From Exophiala sp. HKRS030 (taxonomy: Eukaryota; Ascomycota; Eurotiomycetes; Chaetothyriales; Herpotrichiellaceae), in NCBI GenBank assembly GCA_023897205.1, contig JAHWDD010000002.1:2294001-2358000 (forward strand): a stretch of 64,000 bases of DNA, given 5' to 3'. Made by a program: the position numbers and the translations under genes. The notes beneath the pieces were generated by a model, which had not been told where the DNA came from, ran no database searches, and worked only from the letters and a program-made list of their open reading frames with translations. The first letter of the stretch is position 1. Every line of letters begins with the position of its first letter. Below are positions 54,270 through 64,000 of the stretch, one piece after another.

Positions 54270-55667
54270 TCACGCCTTCTCCAACACAAGCACCGAAGAA
54301 CATGAGGATGCATTGTACGTCCGAACATCGACCAGCTTCAAGCCTGACCTCTCAATCAAATGTTCCCATTCCGTCCGTGTGCGTTCCTTTCCTGCGAACA
54401 AGACATTCATCCAGACATCCTGCAGCGACGCTTGCCATGGCACATTGGTATCGGGCATGAACACTTCATCCGCCAGTATCTGCGAATCGCTACCCATTGC
54501 CTCCGCCAATCTGGACAGAATGGACACACAGTCATCATCTGGCCAATCATGCATGATACGACGGAGGTAGTAGAACCTTGACCCTAGCACTTTGGTTAAC
54601 ATTCTCCCACGTAGGTTCAAGTGTGCCTTGCTGGGGACTGCTTACCCTGAACAGACTGCTTTTCGAAGAAGTTCTGCGTCGTGACCTTTACGCCCTCGAT
54701 CGGCGGCAATCCACTCACAGCCTGAGGAAGATCTTGCAGGACAATTGTGCCGTGAAGATTGGGATACTTTTCGAGAAGTTGCTTGCACTGGTGACCGTGG
54801 CCACCACCAACGTCCACAAAGAACGGTTTCTCAGAGCCTTGCGTGACCTGCCGGGCCGCCTGGTCGAGCACATTCAGGCCTTTGAGCCAATCCGAGTTCT
54901 GAATTGCCGTCATGGAAACTTGAAGGGCGTTGAAGTTTTTCGGGTGCTGCTTGAGCCAGTCGAACCCACCGAGCTCGGTGCTGTGTCCTTTCTGGAACGG
55001 AGTCTTGGTGTTCGATGAGATGTCTGCGTATGATGTTTCCTCAAGAAAGGCAGGCAGTGCGCTGGCGGCCGGTCCGCAGGTGTCGAATCTGTTTCAAGTT
55101 GAGGACGGCGCATTCGTTCAGCGCCCAAAAGGCCTAGAGGGTGAACCTACCCGTGAACCATACCAGCATCAATCTGAGGGCTGGCAAGAAAACGTGTGAG
55201 CTTATTAGCTTGATAGTGATCTGGGGATGGGTTCAAGACGAATCCCAAGGAGGCAAGATATCGAAGTAGTCGTCCTAGGTTGATGTGAGCCGATGATCCA
55301 GCGAGTGACAAATCCGGATATGTTGAAAAACACGTACGGAGCAGTTCAGGACTTGCGCCCGACCTCTCAGCGAGCTGTGCCACGCTCACAGGCGACGAAG
55401 CATTTTCAGCAAGGTGCTTGAACAGGCCCAACTGGACCCCAACATATAACACGCTGATTTGGATTTGCTAGATGCCAATTATAAGATCAGCCTGGAATCT
55501 GATTGTACTTTCGAATGATCATGTACCGAGTTATACAACTTCATCAACGTGTCCATCGGACTTTCAAGCTGAGACTGAAGCTGTTGAAGACTGGTCAGTA
55601 TCGTTTGTCGGCCAGCCTCGTCGGCGGCCTCCGCCAGCGACGTGATTTGTGTGATGATCGATTCCAT
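54270..55667 (-). CDS. SAM-dependent O-methyltransferase (plant COMT-like, Methyltransf_2)
   Basis: Five exons on the minus strand are 55667-55527, 55467-55338, 55274-55151, 55088-54646 and 54583-54270 (383 residues). Introns of 59-63 bp start GTACAT, GTACGT, GTAGGT and GTAAGC. The second intron is exactly 63 bp and open in frame, so it could be mistaken for coding. Removing it restores PELLRRLLRYLASLGF. The N-terminal dimerisation domain is followed by the SAM loop VDVGGGHG (about 223-230), the FFEKQSVQGSRFYYLRRIMHDWPDDD block with catalytic-base His at about 291, and a final VLVLEKA. The family methylates hydroxyl groups of small aromatic or other secondary metabolites. It lies at the left end of the UstYa-containing cluster, where it could methylate the product. 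The fit to cyclic peptides is inferred. Confidence 0.88.
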
Positions 55668-56115
55668 GTTATAAATAACCACTCTTGGAATGTTGCGAAA
55701 TACGATGATGAGGGACAATGTGACAACCGACTCTATCACCAAGTGCGCATCAATCAATCACTTTATACATGCAGCGGTGTGGGCCATGAAGCGCTATGGC
55801 CGAAGTGCATCGCCGTGGATTTTCCCGGAGCCCGTGGAAAAGAACAAGACATCATAACCCACCAATACCCATCATACGAGGGAGGTGAAAAGTCAAAAGC
55901 TCGATCTATCAATACTGAATAATTCAACGTGCGCCTACCAAAAGCCTGTTAGGGCCGAAGGTGATTCGGTGTTGGTGTCCTGGCCACGGATATCTGGTTA
56001 CGTTATATGACCGAGCTTCACCAGGCACCACCATTTTAATTCTGAAGACGACTTGGACAATGTATCATTTATATTCTACTTGGACTGATGGCGGCAGCCT
56101 AGTTTCTCCCTGCCT
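55668..56115. other. Region between O-methyltransferase start and FAD-oxidase 3' end
   Basis: About 0.45 kb containing the methyltransferase promoter. An AT-rich TTTATAA element lies immediately upstream of its ATG. No gene is visible. Confidence 0.55.
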
Positions 56116-57826
56116 TCAAGACTGAGGAGCGATAGCAAAGAGTTTATTGAATGTGCTTCCAGGATCATATTTCGCCTTCAACCCTTGAAGTTTTGCATAA
56201 TTCTCTCCAAAGATATCCCTGGATCTCTCATCATATTCTGTTTTTTTTTTGGAAATTTGTCAGTCAGTCATGATGACCACTTTAAACACACAGAACAGTC
56301 GTTGCCGTTGAGGCAATCACTAGCAAAAGGACAAAAAGACTTACGATCATAATTTCCATAGAGCAACACGGCCCCTTTGTCACCTCTCAATCCAACACCA
56401 CCCTCGACACCTTTGCCCGTCTCTTTCCCCTGTCTCTCCAGTTCGGCCTTGAACTTTTCGTTGACATCCCGAGCCCACTGTCTACACTTGGCGTCGTTCT
56501 CTTGTTTGTTCCACATGGGTAAAATCAGGCCGTTCAAGTGCCAACCTCTATTCGCAAAGCTGCCAACGTTCTTCTCCTGGACCACCTTCAGGGGGTCGAA
56601 AATCTCCCACAAGATGATGCTCACGTGCGTATCCGGATCGGGGTCCGTGAAGGCGACATAGTTCTCGAGCATCTCCAGCACAAAGTCGGTGCGGACTGGC
56701 ATGCTGAACGCCGCTCCCTTCATGCTCGCACGCATCCCGATCGGCGGCGCCAAGAGGGTGTTGACGGTCGGGTATGGGACCATGGCCGTCGTGTCGACCG
56801 GCGCCCCCAGATCATAAAGCTCCTTGTACATGGTCTTGGCCTCCTGCTCCGTGCCGAAGTATATGACACTCACCAGGATCATGACCTGTCCGCCCGCGGG
56901 TGGAGGCCTGGCGATGGCGATACCTCCGGTGCCCCTGCCGGCAACTTTTGTCTTTCCGTTCGCGTCCGGAGTGTAGAGCCTGTTGGTGGCGTCGACAACC
57001 TTCGTTATGATTTCAGGTGTCGGTGGGAAGATCAGGAGTCCAGCCCAGACGTCGCCCTGCTCGAAAGCCTTCAGTACGAACTCGGTGACGGCTCCAAAGT
57101 TCTGGCCCGCGCCCTGCAGAGCCCAGAAGAGATCTGCGTTCTCCTTGGGGTTCGCCTTGACGATGTCACCGTTTGCAAGGACCACGGTGCATTCGAGCAT
57201 ACAATCGATCGAGAGACCATGTTGCCCCGTGAGCCATCCATAACCGCCGCCAAGTACGAGACCACCTACGCCACTAAATTCGCAAGAAGGATCAGTGTCA
57301 GCAAAATGAGAAAAAAGGAGCAATAAGAAGAAGCAGAAAAAAATGAAATAGGCAAAAAAAAAAAGACTCACGTATCTGCGACCGTACCTCCCACAGTCGC
57401 GAGGCCAAACTTGACCCCTTCCTGGTCGACGTCCCCCCACGTCGCTCCGCCCTGGACCTTGAACGCCTTGACTCCGCCTTCCCAATCCGCGACGCTGACC
57501 CCGCGCATCTTGGCGTTGAGGTCGACCAGCAGTCCGCCGTCGGTGCTGCTCACGCCCGCCGTGCTGTGCCCGCCTCCCTTGACGGCGACGTCGATGCCCT
57601 TCTCGCTCGCGTACTTGAGCGCGACGCTGACTTCTTGCGCGGACGTCGGGGTCAAGACGGCCCCCGCCGGTTTCTCTGCGGCGCGGGACCAGCGGTGGAT
57701 ACTCTTCTCGTAGCCCTCGTCCGTCGGCGCGAGGACCTTGGCGGACGTATCTTTCAGCAGGGTTTGGAGATTGTCAATGTCCGAGGCCGTGATGGCACGT
57801 TTGGTCGATGGTGAGATTGAACCCAT
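56116..57826 (-). CDS. FAD-linked oxidase, berberine-bridge-enzyme type
   Basis: Three exons on the minus strand are 57826-57372, 57273-56345 and 56237-56116 (501 residues). Introns of 98 and 107 bp begin GTGAGT and GTAAGT, and junctions rebuild VADTGVGGLVLGGGYG and YGNYDQYDERSRD. The PCMH flavin domain covers about residues 40-210, with the covalent-FAD His in KGGGHSTAG. The Cys normally found ahead of the GG loop for a second covalent bond is replaced (FGLATVGG), so a single histidyl bond is expected. The BBE C-terminal motif with YGNYDxYDE and LKAKYDPGSTFNKLF is complete. I see no signal peptide. The enzymes oxidise alcohols, amines or carbon chains in secondary metabolism. Together with UstYa proteins it is a plausible peptide-tailoring oxidase. 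Confidence 0.9.
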
Positions 57827-62725: not shown

Positions 62726-63839
62726 AGCAAGGTCTTCTGGGGAGTCGCCAAGGTAAGTGAGAAAAGGACTATTATTAGAATTCTCTAACTGTCCGGCCCA
62801 GGAAGACAAAGGGGATATGCAAGAGTGAATACGCCGGAAGAGGATATATCACGGAGAAATCAAACCGACAGGGATGGCTCTGGTTCAGGTTGTGTGTCTG
62901 TATTCGGGTGTCGTTGAAGTTAACGAATACCCCGTACGTATCCACATATACCAAGCCTAGTCCGTCTCGGGCCTCATGTTCTCCTGTTGTCTCCGTAGCT
63001 TTAGCGACTTGTTGCCTCGTATCGTAATATATCATTTACCCGATGTTTATCAGAATAAGCGAGACCGAGGTCACGGACTACTTAATCTAGACTTCCACTC
63101 TTGTGCCTAGCTTCATGAAAGTCCCATTGAAAAGTCCATTGAGACCCTATGGCTATTTACCACATACATACACTACTCATGTACTTGTGTCGCATTGGAG
63201 AAACCCACTGGGGCCAAAGTTTCGAGTTGCCTAACACTTTGTCACTTGAATCCACCCCAATTTGGTGGCCTGAAGCCGACTTCAAACCAATACCTATCGT
63301 AGAGAGACATATCTTCAGCATGTCACTAAAGATCCCCTTAATTCTTGGCTACGTTAGCATTATACTCGAGGAGGGGATGATCATTCTCTGTTTCAAGAGA
63401 AAGTTCCGAAGGAGGAGTCACTGCTTCGGTGATGGATCATGTTCATTGCCAGAGACCTTTGTCCTTTATTGGCAATTGGCCAACGTAAGCGATTGATGTA
63501 GCGTTGATTCTTCTGACCTGCAGCAGTTACGGGTAATTGTAGCCTTCTGCACTTTTGTGCATCGTCTGGGATTCCGGCGCAGATGATCGCGCACCATACC
63601 ACCTGTCTAGGACCGAGAAACGCCAACAAAGTCCACTGGGTGTATAGAACTGTGGGCTAGTACACAGTCAGCCCACAACATGCCCCCCTGGTGCAGCATA
63701 TTCTCTTCAGCCCAACCTTCAAAGTCTTCTACCTCTGCTTGTGCTTGAGCCGTCAACTCAGATATAAGGAGACCAGACAAAAGCCACATCAACAGCGATC
63801 TGATTTCTAATCAAGAGGTTTCCTGAGAGCATATCAAAA
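62726..63839. other. Region between the small-peptide gene and UstYa 3
   Basis: About 1.1 kb. It begins with the probable 3'-UTR intron at 62753-62801 and ends with the UstYa 3 promoter. A 115-codon plus-strand ORF (63149-63496) and a 61-codon minus-strand ORF (63607-63792) are not supported as genes. Confidence 0.5.
63763..63769 (+). promoter_or_regulatory. TATA-like box upstream of UstYa 3
   Basis: TATAAGG lies 77 bp before ATG 63840, a normal spacing for a fungal core promoter. Confidence 0.5.
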
Positions 63840-64000
63840 ATGGCATCCGAGAATTACAAGCCTCTACTTTCAGGTCCTGAGGATCGGACCTCAGTCGACG
63901 GGCTTTCAGACACAGACCTCAGACCTTTGAAACCAAAGAGCTGGTCCTCGAGGTTGGTGACGCTGTTGTCGAGGCTACGGCCATACATTATTGCCATATT
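63840..64000 (+). CDS. N-terminus of a probable third UstYa-family (DUF3328) protein, cut by window end
   Basis: Fifty-three codons are visible before the right edge. The start MASENYKPLLSG, the acidic DRTSVDGLSD stretch and the onset of a hydrophobic helix after RLRPYIIAI match the cytosolic leader and single TM helix of fungal UstYa proteins. The HXXHC domain would lie outside the window, so the call depends on N-terminal resemblance and on the two family members next to it. Transcription is rightward, which shows that the cluster continues past the window. Confidence 0.55.
   Translation, partial: MASENYKPLLSGPEDRTSVDGLSDTDLRPLKPKSWSSRLVTLLSRLRPYIIAI

What the first reader, a model, noticed from the sequence alone, without database searches (positions are those of the whole stretch)
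54270..64000. Putative fungal RiPP (dikaritin-type) biosynthetic gene cluster, open at the right edge
An O-methyltransferase, a BBE-type FAD oxidase, two complete UstYa/DUF3328 proteins and the start of a third surround a small ORF with a signal peptide and a Kex2-type KR site. UstYa genes next to such a precursor are the known hallmark of dikaritin RiPPs (ustiloxin, phomopsin, asperipin). No NRPS, PKS or terpene backbone gene is visible. The precursor's tail matches none of the core sequences I know, so the product may be new. The left boundary is conserved kinesin-1.
Basis: partly seen in the sequence, partly recalled or inferred. Interest (0 to 1): 0.88.

Follow-up and report, generated by a model that had tools for sequence, protein, structure and literature searches.

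The report
Fungal modified-peptide cluster, single-core precursor candidate
A small group of neighbouring genes in a black-yeast genome looks like machinery for making a cross-linked peptide from a short gene-encoded precursor, unusual in that the candidate precursor carries one copy of the peptide instead of many, and two of its enzyme genes appear broken in this isolate.

Summary
The window's genome is held, so I read rightwards: the third UstYa gene continues, a membrane-anchored tyrosinase follows, and a PRPP-synthetase gene closes the group. Between kinesin and that gene lie OMT, berberine-bridge-type (BBE) oxidase, UstYa1, UstYa2, a 62-aa secreted small ORF, UstYa3 and tyrosinase. All three UstYa carry both HxxHC copper motifs. 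No ketosynthase or condensation match was listed on this contig. UstYa2 and the tyrosinase recur in Exophiala oligosperma under locus tags three apart. This supports a dikaritin-like RiPP cluster. The small ORF looks coding but has one Kex2 site and no repeats; the same scan found a textbook repeat precursor at another UstYa locus of this genome, so the absence here is informative: either a single-core precursor or another substrate. UstYa3 and the tyrosinase each have a frame break here, while the E. oligosperma tyrosinase is uninterrupted: decay in this isolate, or sequencing errors. The candidate core is new, the kind of system known: a single-core variant of the dikaritin type, with the precursor-product link unproven.

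The parts
54270..55667 (-). O-methyltransferase-fold protein, 404 aa in a 4-exon model (55527-55667, 55151-55467, 54646-55088, 54270-54583); a further in-frame intron at 55275-55337 is possible and would remove 21 aa, about where LepI lacks residues
   Evidence: Models; PF00891 and PF08100; best solved relative LepI, 237 bits, but HD at the catalytic position where LepI has RD
56116..57826 (-). BBE-type FAD oxidase, 501 aa, 3 exons
   Evidence: PF01565 and PF08031; best solved relative EncM
59141..60267 (-). UstYa1 (DUF3328), 334 aa, 2 exons, strongly hydrophobic segment, HQIHC and HRNHC motifs
60871..61933 (-). UstYa2 (DUF3328), 279 aa, 5 exons, hydrophobic segment, HHLHC and HVDHC motifs; the first two introns have non-standard sites
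   Evidence: 99% identical to E. oligosperma LTS17_006217
62410..62415 (+). TATAAA box 127 bases upstream of the small ORF's ATG
62537..62725 (+). Candidate single-core precursor, 62 aa: signal-like start, pro-region, one KR, 19-aa acidic tail with Tyr-Tyr
   Evidence: codon statistics; protein search found only its own cluster P0001; no convincing paralogue in the genome
62753..62801 (+). Intron-like stretch (GTAAGT donor, CTAAC, CAG acceptor) beginning 27 bases after the stop; a 3'UTR intron or the trace of a second exon
63840..64000 (+). Start of UstYa3, which continues outside the window to about window-coordinate 65024 (L015), with HQMHC and HIDHC motifs and a frame break after the second motif
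   Evidence: the downstream piece in another frame continues the profile (197-219/220, E 0.16, below the cut-off)
50771..53230 (-). Kinesin gene, left border
   Evidence: PF00225 2e-108

Best explanation
A dikaritin-like RiPP gene cluster of an Exophiala-type black yeast, about 13 kb long, between kinesin and PRPP synthetase. Proposed working: the 62-aa precursor enters the secretory pathway by its signal peptide (predicted by a crude rule), Kex2 cuts after its single KR (inferred), and the released 19-mer, with Tyr-Tyr near its start and an acidic remainder serving as recognition tail (inferred), is oxidised on side chains by membrane-anchored binuclear-copper UstYa enzymes together with the tyrosinase, giving Tyr-based cross-links or hydroxylations (inferred from relatives). 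The OMT and BBE oxidase then methylate or further oxidise the product (inferred). In this isolate UstYa3 and the tyrosinase carry frame breaks, so the pathway is probably lost or impaired here, while at least the tyrosinase is uninterrupted in E. oligosperma.
For: Three UstYa genes with both HxxHC motifs; tyrosinase next to them, the only one of 11 tyrosinase genes within 10 kb of any of 6 UstYa loci, chance about 0.025; 2 of the 63 relatives of that tyrosinase bear the source name 'tyrosinase ustQ' (P0087, P0080). Small ORF between UstYa2 and UstYa3 with coding-like codon use and a TATA box. No KS or C match listed on the contig. UstYa2 and tyrosinase are LTS17_006217 and LTS17_006220 of E. 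oligosperma, both rows giving a longest contig of 1,034,770 bases. UstYa copper chemistry: CctR study PMC12435403 (passages). Cyclisation by UstQ with UstYa/UstYb: PMC6514808 (passages).
Against: No repeated cores. Nearest listed S41 peptidase match 274 kb away; no transporter among the cluster proteins scanned (not every frame between the borders was scanned). The precursor search found nothing outside its own 90% cluster (1 of 4 candidates passed). UstYa enzymes also serve NRPS and polyketide pathways (PMC12048977, section 22). The OMT's nearest solved relative is LepI, which I recall as a non-peptide pathway enzyme. A signal+KR+Tyr ORF arises in about 6% of shuffles of this much intergenic DNA. 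The tyrosinase's full-length solved match is a catechol oxidase (4j3p, 127 bits), so phenol hydroxylation is not assured.
Confidence: 0.55

Rival explanations
1. The enzymes tailor a non-ribosomal or polyketide product whose backbone gene lies elsewhere in the genome, and the small ORF is an unrelated secreted peptide.
For: UstYa genes occur in astin, cyclochlorotine and atpenin pathways (PMC12048977 section 22; PMC12435403 passages). The OMT resembles LepI and the BBE oxidase resembles EncM, both recalled from non-peptide pathways. No repeat precursor.
Against: No KS or C match listed on contig C2; UstYa plus tyrosinase is the ustiloxin/phomopsin pairing; the small ORF sits between two UstYa genes and looks coding.
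Confidence: 0.22
2. The true precursor is a repeat-type gene elsewhere (for example the repeat protein at C4), or was truncated here: the present ORF ends at a stop just before an intron-like stretch and is the remnant of a longer precursor.
For: GTAAGT intron-like stretch begins 27 bases after the stop; neighbouring genes carry frame breaks; a textbook repeat precursor lies near the C4 UstYa pair.
Against: The C4 precursor has its own two UstYa genes, and its repeats show no Tyr. No repeat-bearing frame was found downstream of the stop. The short form also lies within P0001 (4 members, 5 contigs), though its other members could not be read.
Confidence: 0.13
3. The frame breaks are base errors of the assembly and the cluster is fully active (this concerns activity only and can be true together with the best explanation).
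For: The E. oligosperma tyrosinase is uninterrupted, 392 aa, 98% over the first piece.
Against: The assembly holds NRPS frames of 4838 and 4857 aa without a break, so two breaks about 2 kb apart in one cluster are unlikely to be errors.
Confidence: 0.3

Closest known systems
Ustiloxin and phomopsin clusters (dikaritins)
   Same: Several UstYa-type proteins, a tyrosinase (UstQ, PhomQ), a methyltransferase and a secreted KR-bearing candidate precursor
   Different: Those precursors give 16 fragments or hold 8 KR-flanked repeats (PMC6514808 passages); here one KR and no repeats. Their methyltransferases act on the peptide's amino group; this one is of the LepI/OMT fold. No S41 peptidase near; a BBE oxidase besides.
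Lichen RiPP Clan R1 (Parmeliaceae), PMC12048977 passages and section 22
   Same: Two UstYa-type genes, tyrosinase and O-methyltransferase; no repeated core was found there and a single core was raised as one possibility
   Different: Clan R1 also has an FGE-sulfatase and a SAM-dependent methyltransferase; no BBE oxidase was named in the passages seen.
Asperipin-2a cluster
   Same: UstYa-type oxidase acting on a Tyr-rich core
   Different: Four genes: precursor, one UstYa homologue, a transporter and a reductase (PMC6514808 passages)
Kex2-processed repeat protein at C4 of the same genome
   Same: Signal-like start, KR sites, acidic fragments, UstYa pair nearby
   Different: Nine KR sites and repeats; no tyrosinase match near

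Membership tests
Dikaritin (five-gene definition of Ding et al. as given in PMC12048977 section 23) | Precursor with N-terminal leader | tested here: met
   Signal-like N-terminus by a crude rule, no SignalP available
Dikaritin (five-gene definition) | Repeated core/recognition motifs in the precursor | tested here: not met
   Repeat scan of 53-70 kb gave 0 hits, while the same scan found the C4 precursor
Dikaritin (five-gene definition) | Tyrosinase | tested here: met
   Two pieces each match PF00264 (7.3e-20; 7.1e-15); interrupted in this assembly, uninterrupted in E. oligosperma
Dikaritin (five-gene definition) | Methyltransferase | tested here: met
   PF00891; activity on a peptide not testable
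Dikaritin (five-gene definition) | Multiple DUF3328 proteins | tested here: met
   Three
Dikaritin (five-gene definition) | Transporter or peptidase genes | tested here: not met
   Nearest listed S41 match 274 kb away; none among the cluster proteins scanned; a transporter-like gene, L016:685-1503, lies beyond the PRPP-synthetase border. Other peptidase families were not searched. The paper notes functional clusters that lack a peptidase gene.
Dikaritin (DUF3328 as class-defining enzyme, 2021 definition as given in PMC12048977) | UstYa protein with two HxxHC motifs | tested here: met
   3 of 3 proteins, UstYa3 in its first piece
RiPP in general | Product made from the ribosomal precursor | not testable with these tools
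   Needs metabolite analysis

The most novel reading that the evidence does not exclude
A single-core dikaritin: a 62-aa precursor with one Kex2 site whose Tyr-Tyr 19-mer is cross-linked by three copper UstYa oxidases and a tyrosinase and further tailored by an OMT and a BBE flavin oxidase, giving a scaffold unlike ustiloxin, phomopsin or asperipin, in black yeasts, with the pathway lost in some isolates and kept in others.
Probability: 0.38. Interest if true: 0.65.

Novelty: new variant of a known kind. Interest (0 to 1): 0.5.

Why it matters
The large published survey of these fungal precursors looked for repeated sequences (PMC7329392 passages); a genuine single-core precursor would be missed that way and would show that repeats are not required. 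The cluster also gives a natural comparison between interrupted and uninterrupted versions in close relatives, and pairs UstYa chemistry with a BBE oxidase.

Tried and rejected
Considered and rejected: an NRPS/PKS cluster; a repeat precursor hidden in the cluster; a second small ORF at 63320-63496 and a 187-aa ORF at L015:4426-4989 as further cluster genes (codon scores below zero; no Pfam match for the latter); intron explanations for the two frame breaks (the stretch between the broken frames is only about ten bases in each).

Led nowhere: PDB sequence search with UstYa1 (0 matches); NCBIfam for one UstYa2 homologue and the precursor (no match); an AlphaFold job on an alignment of 28 of the 36 UstYa2 homologues, P0003 first, had not finished at any collecting call (60, 64, 66, 68, 69, 72, 75, 76, 78, 80-83); literature on Exophiala with UstYa (0 papers).

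Limits: no fungal genome collection with gene context was available, so gene order in relatives rests on locus tags; signal peptide judged by a crude rule; all splice sites are predicted, and the OMT may have one more intron.
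Full report
What was checked. The finding's region was read directly. The window lies in a held genome of 59.8 Mb, contig C2:2294001-2358000, so the sequence to the right could be read. Coordinates above 64000 below continue the window's numbering; L015 position p is window position 63000+p.

Anatomy. Between a kinesin gene (ORF 50771-53230, PF00225 2e-108) and a PRPP-synthetase gene (68129-69679, PF13793 and PF14572) lie seven genes: OMT (54270-55667, minus), BBE-type FAD oxidase (56116-57826, minus), UstYa1 (59141-60267, minus), UstYa2 (60871-61933, minus), small ORF (62537-62725, plus), UstYa3 (63840 to about 65024, plus) and a tyrosinase (65833-67279, plus). 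Models are, Pfam matches. UstYa2's first two introns have non-standard sites, and the OMT may have one more intron, 55275-55337. Each UstYa protein has a hydrophobic segment (best 19-residue mean 1.8-2.6) and two HxxHC motifs. Pairwise local identity of the three is 31-37%, so they are not recent duplicates.

Copper enzymes. In CctR the double HxxHC motif forms a binuclear copper centre in a membrane-associated dimer that needs oxygen; AprY and ApnU are likewise copper- and oxygen-dependent dimers (PMC12435403, passages). For ustiloxin, UstQ (a tyrosinase homologue), UstYa and UstYb together give the first cyclic intermediate (PMC6514808, passages; PMC12048977, passages). The present cluster has the same two enzyme types. 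Across the genome, 14 UstYa matches fall in 6 loci and 16 tyrosinase matches in 11 genes by my grouping; only here do they lie within 10 kb of each other, with a chance of about 0.025. Such searches list only the best candidates.

Backbone. None of 20 listed ketosynthase matches and none of 24 listed condensation matches lies on contig C2. Terpene cyclases, NRPS-like enzymes, P450s and cyclodipeptide synthases were not searched for; none appeared among the proteins scanned, which do not cover every frame between the borders.

The small ORF. It has a signal-like start, a pro-region, one KR and a 19-aa tail with Tyr-Tyr, seven acidic and no basic residues (read). Codon use: 0.20 bits per codon, above all 35 intergenic stop-free stretches (on which the non-coding model was trained) and above 73% of 81 coding blocks. 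In a second model it scores 0.163, above all 67 antisense stretches. The UstYa2, UstYa3 and tyrosinase exons tested score near zero, so this measure does not mark every gene here. A TATA box lies 127 bases upstream of the ATG. P0001, the one protein that the search returned (4 members, 5 contigs), starts at an in-frame ATG 38 codons further upstream. That ATG would lie only about 13 bases after the start of the TATA box, so I prefer the inner ATG, which gives the signal-like start. Against the ORF: by the crude signal+KR rule 7 ORFs pass in 102.4 kb, against 0-4 in ten shuffles, and with Tyr required 25 of 400 shuffles of the intergenic DNA contain one. No convincing paralogue was found in the genome: the second hit had E 0.2. 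An intron-like stretch follows 27 bases after the stop.

Repeats. A scan for three or more KR sites followed by similar fragments found nothing in 53-70 kb and nothing in 7 of 8 other 10-kb pieces around UstYa loci. In the eighth, L019, it found a textbook repeat precursor with nine KR sites, with a signal-like start in an upstream frame, near the C4 UstYa pair. This works as a positive control: a classical precursor would have been seen.

Relatives. UstYa2 is 99% identical to E. oligosperma LTS17_006217 (2 differences in 191 residues); the next hit is 60%. The tyrosinase's first piece is 98% identical to LTS17_006220. Both rows give a longest contig of 1,034,770 bases. The two tags between them would fit the small ORF and UstYa3 (inferred). 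A protein labelled Knufia peltigerae matches the first 148 tyrosinase residues with 2 differences, E. oligosperma with 5. The window therefore comes from an Exophiala-type black yeast (Chaetothyriales; lineage); the species itself is not established.

Frame breaks. The tyrosinase reads in one frame to 66844 and in another from 66855. UstYa3 changes frame shortly after its second HxxHC motif, and the following piece continues the profile at 197-219 of 220 (E 0.16, below the cut-off). The E. oligosperma tyrosinase is uninterrupted; its UstYa3 could not be looked up. Elsewhere this assembly carries 4838- and 4857-aa open frames, so its base quality is good and decay is likelier than error, but no reads were available.

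Tailoring. The OMT's best solved relative is LepI (237 bits, next different protein 113), recalled as a SAM-dependent pericyclase. At the catalytic HD motif the present protein keeps His, where LepI has Arg (alignment), so I favour methylation. The BBE oxidase is nearest to EncM. The tyrosinase's full-length solved match is a catechol oxidase (4j3p, 127 bits). Whether OMT and BBE belong to the pathway was not testable.

Literature. Nine searches of the held library listed no paper that I recognised as treating this cluster or a characterised single-core dikaritin: listings showed 30 of 520, 0, 15 of 4587, 10 of 10, 12 of 13, 15 of 21, 4 of 4, 15 of 58 and 20 of 27. Most subscription papers are not held. 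PMC12048977 (passages and section 22) raises a single core as a possibility for lichen clans, one of which (R1) has a similar enzyme set. PMC7329392 (passages) reports DUF3328 genes near 22% of repeat precursors, tyrosinases near some of these, and Exophiala among the genera with repeat precursors. PMC11664114 (passages) reports at least one predicted RiPP cluster in each black-fungus genome that it analysed, so such clusters are not rare in these fungi. PMC9233826 and PMC7099791 were seen in passages only and did not change the picture.

Verdict. A real, compact cluster of the dikaritin kind, at least partly shared with E. oligosperma, that does not meet the classical repeat criterion; its candidate single-core precursor is plausible, not proven; the pathway is probably impaired in this isolate.

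Noticed in passing
L019:3634-4350 (minus strand; G000 C4:5334633-5335349): A Kex2-processed repeat protein with nine KR sites and acidic W-containing and HH-containing fragments, near two adjacent UstYa genes; probably a two-exon precursor of a second RiPP cluster. It may belong to the di-histidine types that PMC7329392 describes.
   Followed up: partly
L026 (G000 C14:2870-3328): A UstYa-like match with ten in-frame stops near the start of a contig; possibly a decayed copy, though the scan reads through introns.
   Followed up: no
G000 C6:4307375-4307865, C16:291964-292466, C5:4595343-4595555: Three further single UstYa loci with no tyrosinase match near and no repeat precursor in the pieces scanned.
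   Followed up: partly
window 20001-22000: GC content peaks at 0.618 against about 0.50 on either side.
   Followed up: no
L016-L018: Right of the PRPP-synthetase gene lie a transporter-like gene and a fungal transcription factor (Pfam), and by eye an oxidoreductase, an alpha/beta hydrolase, a permease and a Baeyer-Villiger-type monooxygenase; possibly a catabolic group.
   Followed up: no
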